Source: Candidatus Avelusimicrobium pullicaecorum
GTDB lineage: Bacteria > Elusimicrobiota > Elusimicrobia > Elusimicrobiales > Elusimicrobiaceae
DNA length: 64,000 nucleotides
Direction of reading: 5' to 3'
NCBI GenBank assembly: GCA_944322825.1
Contig: CALUQD010000005.1
Location: 1-64,000 of the forward strand
The notes under the pieces were generated by a model that was given only the letters and a program-made list of their open reading frames with translations, did no database searches and was not told the origin of the DNA. Position numbers and translations under genes: made by a program. This document shows positions 29,818-39,208 of this stretch, piece after piece (within the stretch, counting starts at the first letter, position 1; each line of letters begins with the position of its first letter).

Positions 29818-29894
29818 GTGGATGTAGCTCAGCTGGTTAGAGCGCCGGTCTGTGGAACCGGAGGTCGCGGGTTCAAATCTCGTCATCCACCCCA
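29818..29894 (+). tRNA. trnH: tRNA-His (GTG)
   Basis: The cloverleaf is complete: acceptor GTGGATG (29818-29824) with CATCCAC (29884-29890), D arm GCTC/GAGC, anticodon stem CCGGT/ACCGG with loop CTGTGGA and anticodon GTG (29852-29854), T arm with GTTCAAATC. Discriminator C29891 can pair with an encoded G-1 at 29817, the identity mark of tRNA-His. CCA is encoded (29892-29894). Its 3' end overlaps the att site of the integrated element and the last codons of the serine recombinase. Confidence 0.97.
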
Positions 29895-31391
29895 TATTAA
29901 ATGCTTAGAACTTTTAGGGGATTTTCCCTTAATTTCTAAGCATTTTTTATTTCCTTCTGCAAAAATATTGAACGGTTCGCGGTATTTTGGGTAAATTTTG
30001 TGTCCGTCCAATACAAAATCGCTGGCTATATGACGCAAAAGCGGCTTTTTTTCTGAAAGCGGAGCCGCGCGATAGATAGTACCCATATTACATACCAACT
30101 TTAAAATATCCGTGCTTTTTTGCCGTACGACTTCCGGCTGTATCGTTTGGGCTTGTATTTGCTGTGTAAGCTCGGCAATAGCCGTTTTTAAGCGTTCTTC
30201 CGTGCGTTTTATAAACTCCGCCGGATAGCCCTTTTCCCAGCCCTCGTCATATAACCGCTCTAATTCCGTTTGCTTTTTGCTGAGTTCCGCTTTAAGCCCG
30301 CCCGTCGCCTTGTTTTGGGCCTTTTCCAAGTGTTTTAAGCGTATTTCTATGGCTTTTTGTAGCCACGCCACTACTCCCGGCTTTAAACTAATAGCATCTA
30401 TCAAGGCTGCAAACGCCTCATCCAGCTGATGTTCCCGGATGTATTTTTCGTGCGGATGTTGCCCTTTAGAAAAGGAACAGCGGTAATACATATATTTCTT
30501 TTTGGCGAAATCCCCCACAATAGAACAGCCGCAATCTTTGCAATGAAGCAGATTAGAAAAAGGATAATTGCGGGTGGTAACACGGGGACGCTCAAAAAGG
30601 GAGAGAGCCTTATTGGCCCTCTCGAATAAGTCTTTTGTGATGAGCGGTTCGTGAATGCCCGGATAGAGTTTCTTGCCCCAACGGAAAGTGCCATAATACA
30701 TCGGGTTATGAAGCACCCGATACAGGGTACTTTTACGTACTCTACCATTATGCAAACGCTCTCTTAACCCCTCCGCATACAGGATATCCTCTATCATTTG
30801 CAAAGAATATTCCCCGCTGGCCGCCATTTCAAACAAACGCTGTACAAAAGGGGCGCGTTCCGGGTCAACATCAATTTTGATTGTACGGTGGTTGTTTAGG
30901 TAGCCAATCGGCGCGCGGGCCGGATAAATACCCTGTTCGGCCTTTTCTGTCATACCCATTGTGGTTTTGCGGGAAATGTCATTGGATAGTTTTTTGGCAA
31001 CGGCAACCTGCACATCCATCATAAATTCCTCGTCAGAGCTGGACTCCCGACTGTACATCTTATTATCGCGGGAAAAATGAACCACTTTGTCATATTGCTT
31101 TACTAATTGGGCAATTTTAAGTTTATCCACATCATTGCGGGTCATACGGTCTAGCACATCAAAAATAATATGTCTAACCTCGTGATGCTTTTTCATAAAA
31201 GCCAGCATTTCAGAAAAATTGGTTCTTTCAATCTTTCCCCAAGCTGATTCCGCCCCTTTCCATATTTTGACCACCTCTAATCCTTTCTTGGCGGCATATT
31301 CTCGGGCCAGCTTTTCCTGTGCGTCCAGAGAATAGCCGTTTTCTTCCTGTCCTTTGCTGGATACTCTTAAATAGATAACTGTCTTGTCCAT
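29883..31391 (-). CDS. Large serine recombinase (integrase of the tRNA-His element)
   Basis: The 502-residue protein has an N-terminal resolvase domain (VIYLRVSSKGQEENGYSLDAQ, catalytic Ser in the RVSS motif, plus DRMTRN), a recombinase domain (GYLNNHRTIKID..., HNPMYYGTFRWGKKLYPG), a Cys-rich zinc ribbon (CKDCGCSIVGDF...YYRCS) and a coiled-coil stretch. Enzymes of this type catalyse attP x attB integration through Ser-DNA links. The final Gly-Gly and stop codon come from the tRNA-His 3' end, so the gene end differs between integrated and excised states. AAAGGAG precedes the start. Confidence 0.93.
   Translation of the reverse strand: MDKTVIYLRVSSKGQEENGYSLDAQEKLAREYAAKKGLEVVKIWKGAESAWGKIERTNFSEMLAFMKKHHEVRHIIFDVLDRMTRNDVDKLKIAQLVKQYDKVVHFSRDNKMYSRESSSDEEFMMDVQVAVAKKLSNDISRKTTMGMTEKAEQGIYPARAPIGYLNNHRTIKIDVDPERAPFVQRLFEMAASGEYSLQMIEDILYAEGLRERLHNGRVRKSTLYRVLHNPMYYGTFRWGKKLYPGIHEPLITKDLFERANKALSLFERPRVTTRNYPFSNLLHCKDCGCSIVGDFAKKKYMYYRCSFSKGQHPHEKYIREHQLDEAFAALIDAISLKPGVVAWLQKAIEIRLKHLEKAQNKATGGLKAELSKKQTELERLYDEGWEKGYPAEFIKRTEERLKTAIAELTQQIQAQTIQPEVVRQKSTDILKLVCNMGTIYRAAPLSEKKPLLRHIASDFVLDGHKIYPKYREPFNIFAEGNKKCLEIKGKSPKSSKHLIWGG
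29889..29898. other. attL: 10-bp core repeat at the tRNA-His end
   Basis: ACCCCATATT covers the last six bases of the tRNA (with CCA) plus TATT. It is identical to 37463-37472. Confidence 0.6.
29899..29948 (+). terminator. Replacement terminator for tRNA-His, inside the recombinase gene
   Basis: AAATGCTTAGAA (29899-29910) pairs with 29934-29945, with an inner GGG/CCC pairing, followed by a T6 run (29943-29948) on the plus strand. It lies 4 bp after the tRNA, antisense to the recombinase C-terminal codons. It is element-borne and would restore termination lost on integration. Confidence 0.6.
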
Positions 31392-32564: not shown

Positions 32565-33020
32565 TTACAAAAAGAACAGTAGAGAGGATAAGAAATCGCT
32601 CAGTTTTTTTAAGAAACTCTTTGACTCTTTGGGAGTTTCTGAGGTTTCTTTTGGCTGATTATCCTCTACTCCGGGAATAGGTGCGCCTTGCTGATAGGTG
32701 GTATCCATATAATTCCTAAAGGTCTGTTCTTTGGTAGTAGCGGAAGAAGATTTAAATTCTTCTTCAGAAACCGAAACAGGTTTTATATCCGGGTTTCCCT
32801 GTTCCAAACGCTTGTCTAAATCCGCTATAAGTTCAGCCGCCGTATAACATTGCTCTGCGCCTCCCCGGTTAATGCAATAATAGGTCGTTTTGCCAAAGGT
32901 ACGGGATGTTACTTCCGGCCCGGAAATAGTCCAAGTACCATCACTGTTTTTAACCGCATCAAAGCCATACGCAACCTCGCTTAATAAACATACACATAAA
33001 ACGATAAGCGTCTTTTTCAT
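32565..33020 (-). CDS. Small exported protein of the element
   Basis: 151 residues with a signal peptide (MKKTLIVLCVCLLSEVAYG). A domain with a Cys pair (YYCINRGGAEQCYTAAELI) and an acidic/Ser-rich linker follow, then a hydrophobic C-terminal end (FLKKLSDFLSSLLFFL). It overlaps the HsdR-N-like gene by four bases (ATGA type), so the two are co-translated. Function unknown; an exported partner for a nuclease gene is unusual. Confidence 0.55.
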   Translation of the reverse strand: MKKTLIVLCVCLLSEVAYGFDAVKNSDGTWTISGPEVTSRTFGKTTYYCINRGGAEQCYTAAELIADLDKRLEQGNPDIKPVSVSEEEFKSSSATTKEQTFRNYMDTTYQQGAPIPGVEDNQPKETSETPKESKSFLKKLSDFLSSLLFFL

Positions 33021-33823
33021 TTTGTTTCCTCCGTAGGATTTTCCCCATTTAAGGCCTCATTTGCGCCCTCTTTAGCCATCGTAACCACTTTAATTTCGGG
33101 CTGAGCGGGCTTATCTTTCTTCTTAGGGGCGCGAAAGCCCCGTATGTTTTCGGGCAAATTCGGGCATAATTCGCGAATTTTGGCTTCCAGGGTATCCACA
33201 TCCACGCGCGCACCCACTTTGCGCCTTAAAACGCCGCTAATGGCTTTTAATACTTCGTCGCTAAACAAGACGCGGGCTATATTTTCCACACTCAAGGCCC
33301 GTTTTTCTTCTAAAATACCCTCTTTTAAGCGTTTGGCAATCGCTTCCCGGCATAAAGGGAGCAAAAGTTCACGATGGGCCGCTTGGCGATGGCTTAATTC
33401 CAATACATCAAAATCCCAAATTAATTCCGCAGTTACGGGCTGGGCTTTAATATCCACATAGTACAACTGCCAATAAGCCCCGTTTGTTAAAATGCCCCAA
33501 GGAACATTCAAGGTGGCGCAATACTCTATCACTTGGCGGATGTGCTTGTTAAAGTCTTTTTTATCCGTTCCTATTCGCTTGCATTCAAACACATAAAAGA
33601 CTTTCTTATCGTCTTTAATAACGGCATCGCAAGAACGCCCGTTATTGCCGTATTGCCCGAAAACGTGCTCTAAATCATAACCGAACACATCGCAAAGCAT
33701 ATCCATCGCTATTTTTTCGGTAGGGGCCTCTTTAGCATCTAACTCTTGTAAGCGCAATAATTGTTTTTGATACTTTTTAAGGTTTTCTTTAATGCGGGTA
33801 TCTACCCGGATTCCTAAGTTCAT
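33017..33823 (-). CDS. HsdR N-terminal-like PD-(D/E)XK nuclease domain protein
   Basis: 268 residues from the second of two adjacent Met codons (33823), better placed for AAAGGAG. Residues about 35-150 match the type I restriction HsdR N-terminal (HSDR_N-like) fold: PTEKIAMDMLCDVFGYD, GRSCDAVIKDDKKVFYVFECKRIG with the D...ExK nuclease triad, HIRQVIEYCATL and GILTNGAYWQLYYVD. There are no helicase motifs, so it is not a full restriction subunit. It may be a nuclease or a phage-derived defence or replication protein. It sits between the non-coding structured segment and an exported protein. Confidence 0.75.
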   Translation of the reverse strand: MNLGIRVDTRIKENLKKYQKQLLRLQELDAKEAPTEKIAMDMLCDVFGYDLEHVFGQYGNNGRSCDAVIKDDKKVFYVFECKRIGTDKKDFNKHIRQVIEYCATLNVPWGILTNGAYWQLYYVDIKAQPVTAELIWDFDVLELSHRQAAHRELLLPLCREAIAKRLKEGILEEKRALSVENIARVLFSDEVLKAISGVLRRKVGARVDVDTLEAKIRELCPNLPENIRGFRAPKKKDKPAQPEIKVVTMAKEGANEALNGENPTEETK

Positions 33824-33876
33824 CATACGCTCCTTTTAGAAGATAATCTGTAAAGCGGAACCGAGGAAACGGGAAA

Positions 33877-34130
33877 GGATATAAAAAATGGCGGCTGTTA
33901 TATCCGAGCCAGCTAGACTAACCCAAATATAAACAGCCGCAGTTTCCCGCCCCGAAGGGCAGGAAACATTCGACACAGAACAAGCGGGTAATTAGGCCGC
34001 TTACTCTGTGTCTAAACTCGGCTGTTTTTGGAGTCTAGCTGTGCCTTTGGTATCCCAAAAGCGCACCGCATTCCTCATACGGTTCCAAAAACAGACTCAA
34101 ATTGTGTTTAAGCCGTCAAAACGGCTTAAA
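33877..34130. ncRNA. Highly structured non-coding segment, candidate structured RNA
   Basis: The 456-bp gap 33824-34279 has no credible gene. It contains at least seven stems: 33877-33884/33898-33905; 33891-33899/33932-33940; 33942-33947+33949-33952 with 33957-33960+33962-33967 (loop CGAA); 33972-33979/34005-34012 enclosing 33982-33987/33997-34002; 33910-33919/34032-34041 (10 bp); 34022-34032/34084-34094 (11 bp); 34107-34116/34121-34130. Some stems exclude or cross others, so alternative folds or a pseudoknot are possible. Strand is unknown. An AT-rich stretch (34140-34279) separates it from the pAgo stop. Confidence 0.5.
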
Positions 34131-34279
34131 AAGCCAGAAAAAATACTCCTTCAGAATAAATAACTTATAAATAAGATATATAATAGAAAATACAATTATT
34201 TCCTATAAATAATATACCATTTTAGCCCAAAAATTGTATTTTTTGTCCTAAAATAGGATTTAATCCTCAAACGAGGATA

Positions 34280-35635
34280 TTACATAAAATAAATATAATT
34301 ATATGTCTCGCCAAAAGGAATATCATGATTTTGAATAATTTGAGCAAATTTCTGAGAATAAGTTAGGGTAATTGGCAAAGATTTATATAATAAATTATTA
34401 TTCCAATCCATTTTTGTTAAACCAAGAATACCAGAACAAATTTCATGCCAATTAGCATTTCCTAAATAACGCTTGATTAAAACAGACTTTGGAACAGAAT
34501 ACGCTTCTTTAAAATAATTAGAATCTGTTGTCAGATTGACTGCTCCTTGTAGCCAAAGGACACATTCACGATTAGATAAAGGTAAATAAGTTCCTCGAAA
34601 ACAAGGATGTTTTGAAATTACACGATTGTCGTCAATTCTTACAGCCCTCCACACACTGGATCTAATGATCTGAATCAATTCTACCTGTATTTGATTTCCA
34701 AAAGCATCTTGACAACCAGCTATCTCTTGCTCGGTAAAGTGCGTATTTTTATGAAAAAAAATTCGTTTAGGTAACTTTCCCTGATGTGCCCTTTGATAAA
34801 TATTTAAACTCTTTGAAACCAGAGAGGCCATTTCTACATAAGAAAGATAAGGATTTTTTGCAAAATCAAGAGCATATTCTCGTGTCTGATATGCAACAAA
34901 CTCAAACCCCGTTCCATCTGGTTCAAAAACTTGGCTACAGCAAGTAATATACTGAGGTGTTTTCGCGTCTTCTGCCATTTTTAAACTATAACTTATACCT
35001 AAAAAGGCTTCCTCTGTGTTTGCAGATTTTAGTTTCCAAGGGATTCCGCCAGCCTTAGCATAGATTGCAACGCTTAAGCCCCAAAGGACATTTACTCTGT
35101 TAGACTCAGAAAATGCCTTTTCTGTTAAAATTTGAAGAGGAATTCTATATTTAGCAGCCATCATTTTTATATCTTTATAGAATTCGTTCCAAGACGGGGG
35201 CATAAGCAACAGGAGAACATGAAAAGATAGTCTATTAGCAGCAATACAAGAAAATAAACTTTTCAATCTGCTTGCAATTTCTTGCTTAGAATTTCTAGAA
35301 ATAGCATCCTCTAGTTCTTTAGGAAAATCAAAAATATACTTTTGATCAAGTGTTAAAGATGCTTTAAATATTCTTTTAAACCCCAAATACGGCACATAAT
35401 ATTGATGATAATAAGTAATTTTGCTACTTGAAGTATTTAATTCTTCTACAAGAGCTTCAATCTCTCTTTTCCTTTTTGTTGGGCACAAACACCCAAGTGT
35501 TATATCATTAGGAAATCCTAAAGAATACGGGCCGTGTTGTGTGAGACCCATCAATGGATGGATATTTTCTTTTTTGTTACCAAATACTAAAACGGGTTCT
35601 GGAATTTGACAATACCCTTGTATTTCTGCTTTCAT
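34280..35635 (-). CDS. Short prokaryotic Argonaute (MID-PIWI), catalytically inactive
   Basis: 451 residues from the ATG at 35635; an upstream in-frame Met at 35677 would overlap the SIR2 gene by 41 bases. The N-terminus [27 protein letters not shown] is typical of short pAgos. The middle has the family's KAGGIPWKL motif, the MID-like [15 protein letters not shown], and the end has [28 protein letters not shown] with [12 protein letters not shown]. It lacks N and PAZ domains. The first catalytic Asp position reads GIS instead of GID, so no slicing is expected. It would bind a guide and target nucleic acid and switch on the SIR2 partner. Confidence 0.88.
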
Positions 35636-35636
35636 A

Positions 35637-37355
35637 TCACAGCATTCCTGTAAAGCAATTTTTTGGACAGACTTCAAAGATGGGGTTGTTGCTCTTTAAA
35701 TGAGCAAATGGAGTTAAAAGACAATGATGATCTGTCGTTACCGGTATATTACAAAAAAGAATCTCCGACCAAGCATCTAAATATTTGTTATAGTAAAGAT
35801 TGGATCTCTTCTTCAATCTGCTTTTTATAAAAAGCTTATACTCTTCTCTTGCTTCTTTAGGCTCTATCCATATTGAAGGTTTTAGAATTATAAAAAAGGT
35901 ATCATCGATATTTTCTAAATGAATCTCAACAGCTTCTTGCCACTTCATATTCTTGATATGCCCTTGTATTTCATGATTAGTAGCAGAATTTAATGTTTTT
36001 ACTATCATATCCCCCGTCTTTATTGCAGGAGAGAGCGTAATAAAGTATTTTGTCCCCAATCGCTTAATTGAAAGAGGTTTCTCACGCACCATTGCACGCA
36101 TAAGAGCTTTCAATATTAGATTTTGATATTGCTTACTTGCAAAAAATTCTTTCGGAACATCCATTTCCTCTAAATTTTCTTTAGGCAAAGAAATTTTTTC
36201 TAATTCGGCAGGATTTCCCCAAAATAATATTCTATCTCCTTTTGAAAAAATTAGAGATAATTGAGAAAATTCAGTCGTCAACTCTTTATATGTTTTTATT
36301 TGAGGAATTGAAACAGCCATAATTCTATTAGGAATTTTTAAAATTTTAAAAGCATTTATCCTTAATTTGGGGAATTTTTTCCCAAATGTTTCTTTAAAAG
36401 GGCTCATTGTATGTTTTGAAGACCACCGAACCTTCTCTTGCATTTCTTGGGGTTTCTTATCAATTAATTCCCATATCCTTCGCATAACATCATCGTAATT
36501 TCCTGCACCATCTATAATGTGAGCATTAAATCCTTTAGCTTTAGCATTTTCAATAAATTTGTGAACTGGCTCGGGCAAATCTCTTGATTTTCTTGTCAGC
36601 CAAAAAATACCTTGAGGAAACATATTGGGCATTTCCAACATTTTATTTAACTCTTCCATCACACTAAAATCACGCCCGCTATATCCACTGAAGACTATTC
36701 CATAGCGTACAGCTAATTTTTGAAAAGCTTTCATTAATTCTTGATTTTGGGATTTGAGCGAATCTGAAAGATTTTTGATATGGGTATAACGAAAATCTCC
36801 ATGTATTTTAATATATATTGGGAAATATTCCTTATCTACCGCATTTACGACATCATGAGCTGCCTCTAAATGATATACAAAAGACAGCGGTTTATTTGAC
36901 ATATAAGAAAAAGCCCGTTCAATAACATCATCAAAATTAGTGGTCAAAACTGCTTTTATATATCCCAACTCCAACAAAGCAGCAAAAATTTTATGCCCAC
37001 TGGAAAGATTGTTATTTATAACTTTGCTTTGAAAGTATGCTTGCTGGGCCCTGTTATCATTTTTAAAATATTCTTCTAAATAATAGGAGTATTCCTCAAG
37101 AGCCCCTACAGGAGGATAGCCCCCCCTAGAAGCGAAAAAAGAATTAATTCTTTCGATCTTAGCTTCATTTAAAACAGCATATTCAGATATATCAACATGA
37201 TTATACTGGCAATATAATTTTGTTTTTATGTCATTAATAATATCTTGAGCAGTGGCAATTTGGGCAGAATAAGATGCGCCTGCACCTAAAAACCACATAA
37301 ATTGTGGAGAATGAGAAATATAATATCTTAGAAATTCATCAAAATTCATAGTCAT
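35637..37355 (-). CDS. SIR2-APAZ effector of a SPARSA-type Argonaute system
   Basis: The 572-residue protein has an N-terminal SIR2 NADase domain (residues about 1-290) with [36 protein letters not shown] (catalytic His) and [15 protein letters not shown]. The remaining C-terminal half fits APAZ, the Argonaute-partner domain analogous to N-L1-L2 of long pAgos. Its stop (TGA, 35639-35637) is directly followed by the pAgo ATG. In characterised SPARSA systems, target recognition by the complex activates NAD+ depletion and aborts invading plasmids or phage. Family and order match that design. AT-rich relative to core genes. Confidence 0.88.
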
Positions 37356-37687: not shown

Positions 37688-38395
37688 ATGATTAACTTAA
37701 TTAAAACTCTTTTTGCTACTTGGCAAGGGTGGAGCGAAATTATTATTCCAGCCTGCGGTGCCATTATCATTCCACTATTAATTTTATGGTTAACTTGGTT
37801 TTTTGGGTCATACCGAACTGAAAAAATAGCCGAAAAGAAACGGAGCGAAAGCAAACTAATTTATCTGCGTTCTTTATTTATTTACGCCATAAAAGATTTC
37901 CTAATGTTTCGCAACAATATTTTGTCCAAAAGGAAGTATTTGCGAAATTACAACGACATCACTAACGAAGAGAAAAAACGACTCTTTTCTGCAATTGTCT
38001 TTTATGATACTTATTCCAAATTTGAACCACAAGACTATGCTCTATTAAGTGAGACCCGTCATACTTTTATAGCTAATATCTTGCAAGCAAAAACTTATAT
38101 ACTCCATGTGTATGCAAAACTTAATTTCTTCAATGAAAGCTTGAAAGAAGGACCCAAAAATTTGCAGGGGTTGTTATCTGTTCTTCCAGATAATTTGCGC
38201 AATTTACAACTAGATATTGATGATGCTATTAACAGCATGTTAATAGTACTGGATGATATTGCATTTTTGGAACAACATTTAAATTTAAAACTAATCCATA
38301 TAGATTTAGAAAATTTTGAAAAAGAAGAACTAAAACAAGCCTTGGCTGAGCATCAAATATTCTGTATTCCACCACAGGTACCTAATTCAAATTAA
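37688..38395 (+). CDS. Hypothetical membrane-anchored protein near the defence region
   Basis: 235 residues from the ATG at 37688 behind GAGGAGG. One strong membrane segment (EIIIPACGAIIIPLLILWLTWFFG) near the N-terminus, then a charged, helical cytoplasmic part of about 180 residues. No family is recognised. It is AT-rich like the pAgo operon and converges on the recombinase remnant with a 9-base overlap. It could be a cell-surface or phage-response component of the island; not assignable. Confidence 0.6.
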   Translation: MINLIKTLFATWQGWSEIIIPACGAIIIPLLILWLTWFFGSYRTEKIAEKKRSESKLIYLRSLFIYAIKDFLMFRNNILSKRKYLRNYNDITNEEKKRLFSAIVFYDTYSKFEPQDYALLSETRHTFIANILQAKTYILHVYAKLNFFNESLKEGPKNLQGLLSVLPDNLRNLQLDIDDAINSMLIVLDDIAFLEQHLNLKLIHIDLENFEKEELKQALAEHQIFCIPPQVPNSN

Positions 38396-39208
38396 AGCGA
38401 GAATCTGGCTCACGCGGGCGGGACTCATGCCAAGTGCCGCGGCACATTCCCGCTGGGAAAGGTTATTTACCCTCATATATTCCCGTATCTGCAAGGCAAG
38501 TGCTTTATAATACGTCTTTTTGTCTATTTTGGGTGCTTCGGGGTTGGCTTTAACCCGTTTGTTGCGCCGCACATAATTGGGTTTTACCGCCGCGTGGAAG
38601 GCAAAACTTACCCCGTTAGGGAGCAAAACCTCTATATTTTCCCCTTGGTATGCGTAAGTAATCCGCCGCACCACTTGGGACAGCGTTTCCGTTTGTTGCT
38701 CTAATTCCTGTTGTTCCAGTTCCGCCCTATTGATTAACGCTCGTTCTGCCAACTGTTTTAAAACCGCCTCATTAAACTCCGGCTGGCGCACCGTTCGGGT
38801 AGGGCAGGAGGCATACCCCTCCTTTTGGCAGCGGTGGCAGATATAATAAAAATGTTTTATTCCATTCTTCTTAGCATACACCGGCACCATATCCGAGCCG
38901 CACTCCTTACAGTAGAGGAGACCCCGTAAGAGCCCGGGTATCCGTTTGCGGGTAAAACCGTGGTTTAGGCGGCGGGAACGCAGTAGATCCTGCACCTTAT
39001 CATATGTTTCCCGCGAAATAATGCCTTCGTGTTCGCCTTCGTATATTTTCCCTTTATAAAGCACTTGGCCGATATAGGTAGGGTTGTGGATAATGCGGTA
39101 TAAATGGGCGCGGGATATGGGGCGGGCTTGCCATACTCCTCCATGGCGCAGTTTGCGTTCCGGGAAGCCGGCGCAAATTACGCAAAACGCATCGGCCAGT
39201 TTTTGCAA
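38387..39208 (-). pseudogene. Truncated large serine recombinase, C-terminal part
   Basis: About 273 residues. It retains part of the recombinase domain (ISRAHLYRIIHNPTYIGQVLYKGKIYEGEH), a Cys-rich zinc ribbon (CKECGSDMV... CHRCQKEGYASC) and a C-terminal helix-turn-helix (NNLSQRECAAALGMSPARVSQILAL). The N-terminal catalytic resolvase domain is missing; an in-frame TAA lies just upstream of the first residues. It is the remnant of a second integration, distinct from the intact recombinase at 29883. No product is expected to recombine DNA. Confidence 0.8.

What the first reader, a model, noticed from the sequence alone, without database searches (positions are those of the whole stretch)
33877..34130. 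Dense 250-nt structured non-coding segment next to the pAgo operon
At least seven perfect stems of 6-11 bp are packed into 250 bp without a credible gene, including two long-range pairings (33910/34032, 34022/34084) and a CGAA-capped hairpin. Several stems exclude each other. This could be a structured RNA, a replication or transfer origin, or a packaging signal of the element. A link with the adjacent guide-binding Argonaute cannot be excluded.
Basis: partly seen in the sequence, partly recalled or inferred. Interest (0 to 1): 0.65.

Follow-up and report, generated by a model that had tools for sequence, protein, structure and literature searches.

The report
New leader RNA upstream of pilins
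The stretch encodes a previously unclassified folded RNA that sits just before genes, mostly pilus (surface fibre) genes, in gut bacteria of the phylum Elusimicrobiota, with one to well over a hundred copies per genome, each carrying its own private internal pairing sequence; it probably switches the following gene on or off.

Summary
The segment encodes a ~225-nt structured RNA on the MINUS strand (fold z -10.9). It belongs to a large family with no Rfam match: 62 of 66 genomes of the genus carry it and 87 of 294 sampled in the phylum (Elusimicrobiota). Copies per genome run from a few to at least 125 in one 1.7-Mb genome. Copies lie mostly 30-90 nt upstream of a start codon; all 70 copies sampled in that genome precede type IV pilin-like genes. 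In the window the downstream gene is a HSDR_N-like ORF. In the window's lineage both arms were replaced together while the rest stayed ~98% identical. Two helices (H1a, H4a) keep their sequence and have alternative partners: a possible antiterminator and an SD-hiding hairpin. Best explanation: a cis-acting leader RNA controlling read-through and translation. The switch model is inferred; the window copy itself shows no significant SD hairpin. The same RNA plus gene occurs in two relatives without pAgo.

The parts
33886..34109 (-). core of the structured leader RNA (match to model R1, positions 1-226)
   Evidence: 233.9 bits; family of homologues
34107..34130 (-). H0, 5' hairpin (arms 34121-34130 / 34107-34116); sequence differs between copies
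   Evidence: I13; alignment; folding of this region across copies only weakly above shuffles (mean z -1.0)
34084..34094 (-). H1a 5' strand CTGTTTTTGGA, almost invariant in sequence
34022..34032 (-). H1a 3' strand TCCAAAAACAG; with the following CCG it is also the perfect complement of the H4a 5' strand (possible antiterminator)
34066..34082 (-). H1b hairpin
34043..34062 (-). H1c hairpin
34032..34041 (-). kissing arm 1 (CAGCTAGACT), private sequence in the H1 junction
33910..33919 (-). kissing arm 2 (AGTCTAGCTG), loop of H4b
33969..34015 (-). H2 hairpin
33942..33967 (-). H3 hairpin, UUCG cap
33892..33939 (-). H4: outer stem CGGCTGTT/AACAGCCG (33932-33939 / 33892-33899), weak inner stem H4b, kissing loop
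33883..33888 (-). U-run after H4 (terminator-like)
   Evidence: a T run of >=5 in 123 of 138 copies
33830..33837 (-). Shine-Dalgarno AAAAGGAG of the downstream gene
33017..33826 (-). downstream gene, 269 aa, HSDR_N_2 (type I restriction R-subunit N-terminal fold)
   Evidence: Pfam 6.8e-08; conserved behind the RNA in L024, L025/L081, L026

Best explanation
It is a cis-acting 5' leader RNA, transcribed from the minus strand towards the downstream gene. SHOWN by comparison: conserved fold with covariation; strand; position just upstream of a Shine-Dalgarno (SD) site; U-run after the last hairpin; a kissing pairing between the H1 junction and the H4 loop that is conserved in pairing but not in sequence. 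INFERRED: it is a two-state switch. OFF: H1a closed, kissing loop locked, H4 acting as terminator, and (in many copies) the SD hidden in its own hairpin. ON: the H1a 3' strand plus CG (AACAGYCG) pairs with the H4a 5' strand (CGGCTGTT), undoing the terminator; the freed H1a 5' strand (CTGTTTTTGGAA) invades the SD hairpin (TTCCAAAAACAG) and frees the SD. The private 10-bp kissing sequence acts as a lock inside each molecule. The trigger (metabolite, protein, RNA, temperature) is unknown; I think a diffusible regulator common to all copies most likely.
For: Fold z -10.9. 28 of 72 pairs change on both sides in 16 MAFFT-aligned copies, shuffles 19.7, slid controls 7-16; within one genome 48 of 65 pairs (CM-fitted alignment). 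Kissing arms, not part of the model: >=8 consecutive Watson-Crick pairs in 98 of 101 full rows of A5 (95 of 98 after dropping 3 loci fetched twice), 69 of 70 in genome G069 with 70 different sequences; re-paired arms reach >=8 in about 2.4% and 1.6%. G-U 658 versus A-C 55 fixes the strand. Median distance RNA end to start codon 39 nt over the 134 of 141 copies with a start found. U-run >=5 in 123 of 138; -10-like hexamers 50-69 nt upstream of the core 57 versus 20.6 in shuffles in 110 f1 copies (no such peak in 28 f15 copies). SD pairing 0.705 versus 0.486 with SD-fixed shuffles in 97 f1 copies, 38 with p<=0.05; arms of that hairpin covary, 3.59 of 5 versus 2.42 +/- 0.17 re-paired, in the 29 of 141 copies showing it. 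Antiterminator helix: all 8 pairs in 90 of 100 A5 rows and 62 of 70 in G069. Downstream complement to the core >=9 nt in 44 of 141 versus 5.6% in shuffles, mostly to H1a.
Against: No expression data. The window copy and its orthologues show no significant SD hairpin (L005 p 0.42, L160 p 0.50) and only a 7-nt match of downstream sequence to the H1a/H1b 5' strand. The downstream partner is not copy-specific for H1a (own versus other leaders z 1.5); H1a and H4a are near-invariant, so alternative pairing is argued from conservation plus a few covarying copies. In the second family (f15) the antiterminator has all 8 pairs in only 10 of 30. Switched states cost 0.8-14.2 kcal/mol in the 12 hand-chosen copies (pseudoknot ignored). 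Cargo is mixed, which is unusual for a metabolite riboswitch. Pilin genes outnumber the RNAs, and G000, the window's genome, has 98 pilin hits but 3 RNAs at E<=0.001 (a weak 4th row at E<=0.01).
Confidence: 0.7

Rival explanations
1. A stand-alone small RNA gene with its own terminator that merely sits next to genes and acts in trans.
For: Own -10-like signal and U-run; very high copy number.
Against: Fixed short distance to an SD site leaves little room for a separate promoter of the gene; SD-hairpin covariation downstream; private kissing arms are complementary within, not between, copies.
Confidence: 0.15
2. A mobile or selfish repeat (MITE/REP-like) that spread into promoter regions, with structure kept for mobility.
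For: Dispersed, multi-copy, variable in number between species; the same RNA and gene shared at ~98-100% across genera.
Against: Copies inside one genome are diverged (highest identity in G069 0.81), unlike a recent expansion; position tied to gene starts; compensatory evolution throughout the family; no transposase noticed by eye next to the copies. Empty sites were not examined.
Confidence: 0.08
3. A single-stranded DNA recombination site (attC-like) for shuffling gene cassettes.
For: Almost strict Watson-Crick kissing arms (3 G-U in 945 cells); single-gene units; island context in the window with serine recombinases.
Against: Other helices use G-U freely and asymmetrically by strand, 658 versus 55, an RNA signature; the element is placed before the SD and oriented with the gene wherever a start was found.
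Confidence: 0.05
4. Guide, substrate or partner RNA of the neighbouring short pAgo/SIR2 pair.
For: Adjacency in the window and in L025/L081.
Against: RNA + HSDR_N without pAgo in L024 and L026; all 70 sampled G069 copies precede pilins.
Confidence: 0.02

Closest known systems
Riboswitches and other cis-acting attenuator leaders with terminator or SD-sequestering expression platforms (recalled knowledge)
   Same: 5' leader position, mutually exclusive helices, terminator-like hairpin, SD-hiding hairpin, one RNA class before many genes
   Different: No match to any Rfam 15 family; hypervariable yet complementary kissing arms; >=125 copies in one genome; cargo mostly pilins and exported proteins; no ligand known
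c-di-GMP riboswitches before pilus genes (recalled)
   Same: Control of pilus and surface genes from the 5' leader
   Different: No match to any Rfam family
Loop-loop (kissing) control RNAs of plasmids, ColE1 RNAI/RNAII type (recalled)
   Same: Loop-loop pairing whose sequence differs between types while complementarity is kept
   Different: Here both arms lie in one molecule and belong to a dispersed leader family
Large ornate RNAs such as HEARO, GOLLD, ROOL (recalled)
   Same: Complex structured RNA with pseudoknot, sometimes near mobile elements
   Different: No Rfam match; 225-nt leader of a gene, no linked nuclease family

Membership tests
Any family of Rfam 15 | covariance-model score at or above gathering | tested here: not met
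   window, only a tRNA elsewhere; permissive scan of the segment gave only implausible weak hits; 18 other loci, 0 matches
cis-acting leader (riboswitch-like) | located in the 5' leader of genes, same strand | tested here: met
   141 copies, median 39 nt to the start codon where one was found (134 of 141); 70 of 70 in G069 before pilins, 69 by motif and 1 by eye
cis-acting leader (riboswitch-like) | conserved covarying structure | tested here: met
cis-acting leader (riboswitch-like) | mutually exclusive expression platform | tested here: inconclusive
   SD hairpin supported in a subset; antiterminator by conservation; H1a partner not copy-specific; not supported for the window copy
Riboswitch (strict) | direct ligand binding changes expression | not testable with these tools
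   needs binding and reporter assays
pAgo-associated RNA | co-occurrence with pAgo | tested here: not met
   pAgo absent in L024, L026
attC-like DNA recombination site | structure held at the DNA level, so no strand bias in wobble pairs expected (recalled criterion) | tested here: not met
   658 versus 55

The most novel reading that the evidence does not exclude
Elusimicrobiota run a surface wardrobe of up to >100 pilin genes, each behind its own copy of one switch RNA, and each copy carries a private ~10-bp kissing 'key' that must match within the molecule. The keys insulate the leaders from each other or make them individually addressable, and they can be rewritten on both arms at once, as in the window's lineage. 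This would be an RNA identity code for selective expression of surface proteins.
Probability: 0.3. Interest if true: 0.95.

Novelty: new variant of a known kind. Interest (0 to 1): 0.85.

Why it matters
A new, very abundant class of structured leader RNA in a little-studied phylum, with >=125 copies in one 1.7-Mb genome, would be among the densest cis-regulatory RNA families (comparison recalled, not searched). The kissing arms show a rare pattern: complementarity kept almost perfectly while sequence is free. It gives a handle on how gut and rumen Elusimicrobiota choose among scores of pilins, and a natural set of orthogonal RNA kissing pairs.

Tried and rejected
Rejected: pAgo partner; plasmid, phage or virus element (no match; one viral contigs pattern, 0 hits); known Rfam class; plus-strand RNA (weaker fold and wobble bias).

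Negative results kept: kissing arms show no avoidance of cross-complementarity inside a genome (mean run 3.19 versus 3.24 between genomes). Codes are usually conserved between orthologous cargo; the only clean en-bloc change between orthologues is the window lineage. Three copies (L033, L164, L167) lack matching arms; L033 mixes arms of two known codes; all three come from fragmented assemblies, so recombination and misassembly cannot be told apart. One f15 copy (L154:132-347) has no matching arms, one is truncated (L147), and one of 30 G070 copies reaches only 4 pairs. The swap test for the downstream partner was weak for H1a, modest for H4. P = 2.9e-8 for 12 of 16 arm sites changed at the fourfold-site rate treats the two arms as independent, which they are not. 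Literature searches for this RNA or for pilin leaders in Elusimicrobiota (search listings only) found nothing relevant in the held library; subscription papers are mostly absent.

Full report
OBSERVATION. The segment 33860-34140 folds much better than dinucleotide shuffles, most on the minus strand (z -10.9; plus strand -7.0). The 'CGAA' cap is a UUCG cap on the minus strand.

A FAMILY. A DNA search found 24 of 61 related genomes with copies, all in the window's genus, including two further copies in the own genome. From 16 MAFFT-aligned copies (A2) I built a covariance model R1 without the pseudoknot. R1 finds the RNA in 62 of 66 genomes of the genus and in 87 of 294 sampled genomes of the phylum (9 of 90 genera, families f1 and f15, with stricter filters and only 7 candidates scored per genome, so absences are weak). 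The phylum is Elusimicrobiota: of three named records carrying the same downstream gene, two are labelled Elusimicrobiales and Elusimicrobium, the third only 'uncultured bacterium'. Copy numbers at E<=1e-20 with 150 candidates scored: G069 125, G066 40, G075 23, G084 15, G089 13, G099 6; G070 has about 48 (62 rows including antisense echoes). No Rfam family matches.

STRUCTURE. Helices H1a, H1b, H1c, H2, H3, H4a, H4b plus a kissing pairing between the H1 junction and the H4b loop. In A2, 28 of 72 pairs change on both sides (shuffled 19.7, 0 of 500; slid versions 7-16). Within the single genome G069, 70 copies give 48 of 65 pairs with double changes (CM-fitted, so it leans to the structure). 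G-U pairs number 658 in the minus-strand reading against 55 A-C cells (which would be G-U on the other strand), so the RNA is the minus strand.

THE KISSING ARMS. They were not part of R1. In A5 (102 rows, 101 full length, 3 loci fetched twice) 98 of 101 rows have at least 8 consecutive Watson-Crick pairs, with 67 different arm strings among those 98; random re-pairing gives about 2.4%. G-U makes up 3 of 945 cells, against 2.6-31% in the other helices. In G069 69 of 70 reach 8 pairs, the last reaches 7, and all 70 sequences differ. In G070 29 of 30 reach 8, all different; in f15 most copies have 8-12 pairs. In the window's lineage both arms were replaced: window CAGCTAGACT/AGTCTAGCTG against CAATCGTAGT/ACTACGATTG in L024 (the same place as L160), L025 (the same as L005) and L163, while the rest of the RNA is 97.5-98.5% identical and fourfold sites of the downstream gene differ at 13 of 99 and 8 of 96. 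Other orthologue sets keep their code, so this is one clean event; differing codes among other close leaders (L161/L162 at 92%, L091/L092 at 91%) point the same way.

POSITION AND CARGO. In 141 distinct copies, the start codon follows the RNA by a median 39 nt where one was found (134 of 141). By simple motif, 71 precede pilin-like genes, 21 genes with a signal/TM N-terminus, 42 other, 7 none found; the motif misses some pilins. In G070 26 of 30 are pilins by motif; in G069 70 of 70 (69 by motif, L249 by eye). Pilin N-terminal hits number 98 in G000, 114 in G070 and at least 150 in G069, so many pilins lack the RNA, and G029 and G117 have pilins but no RNA found. In the window the gene is HSDR_N_2. 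In f1 a -10-like hexamer is enriched 50-69 nt upstream of the core, and a U-run of at least 5 follows H4 in 123 of 138 copies.

HOW IT MAY SWITCH (inferred). H1a and H4a keep their sequence while other helices drift. The H1a 3' strand plus the following bases (AACAGYCG) can pair with the H4a 5' strand (CGGCTGTT): all 8 pairs in 90 of 100 A5 rows, 62 of 70 G069 rows, 10 of 30 f15 rows, with own pairs slightly better than re-paired ones in f1 (0 and 4 of 500 shuffles) but not in f15 (89 of 500). Downstream of the U-run many copies hide the SD in a hairpin: mean SD pairing 0.705 against 0.486 in SD-fixed shuffles (97 f1 copies; 38 with p<=0.05; f15 4 of 15), with covarying arms in the 29 of 141 copies of the YYYCC...GGAGN type (3.59 against 2.42). 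The hairpin's 5' arm and loop (TTCCAAAAACAG) are complementary to the H1a 5' strand (CTGTTTTTGGAA). In 12 hand-picked copies forcing that helix changes SD openness from 0.00-0.39 to 0.32-0.97 at 0.8-14.2 kcal/mol. For the window copy and its orthologues the SD hairpin is not significant, so the model rests on the family, not on this copy.

pAgo. The pAgo (34280-35677, Piwi) and SIR2 (35637-37355) genes accompany the RNA in G021 (L025/L081) but are missing in L024 and L026, which keep RNA, HSDR_N gene and recombinase. The neighbourhood looks like an accessory island beside tRNA-His; the RNA belongs to the HSDR_N side.

VERDICT. Real, and more interesting than proposed: a new, abundant family of leader RNAs with private kissing keys. 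Membership in a known class fails; it works like a riboswitch or attenuator leader, but ligand binding is untested.

Noticed in passing
window 34280-37355 (-): Piwi-domain short pAgo overlapping a SIR2-domain gene: a short pAgo/SIR2 pair, present in G021 but absent from the related islands L024 and L026.
   Followed up: partly
window 29818-31391: tRNA-His overlapped at its 3' end by a 502-aa serine recombinase ORF on the other strand, suggesting island integration at the tRNA; a second recombinase with an HTH-like C-terminus lies at 38387-39208.
   Followed up: partly
genomes G000, G069, G070, G117: Very large type IV pilin-like gene families (80-150 or more N_methyl hits per 1.5-1.7 Mb genome), with or without the RNA.
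   Followed up: partly
L163 (G128): Same RNA locus with the HSDR_N gene missing, so the RNA is now followed by the remains of the next gene.
   Followed up: no
L033, L164, L167: RNA copies whose two kissing arms do not match; L033 looks like a chimera of two known codes (recombination or misassembly).
   Followed up: no
upstream of H0, e.g. window 34146-34151 (-): An AAGGAG motif just 5' of the RNA in many copies without an evident start codon; different motif (AGTAGTAC) in several G070 copies.
   Followed up: no
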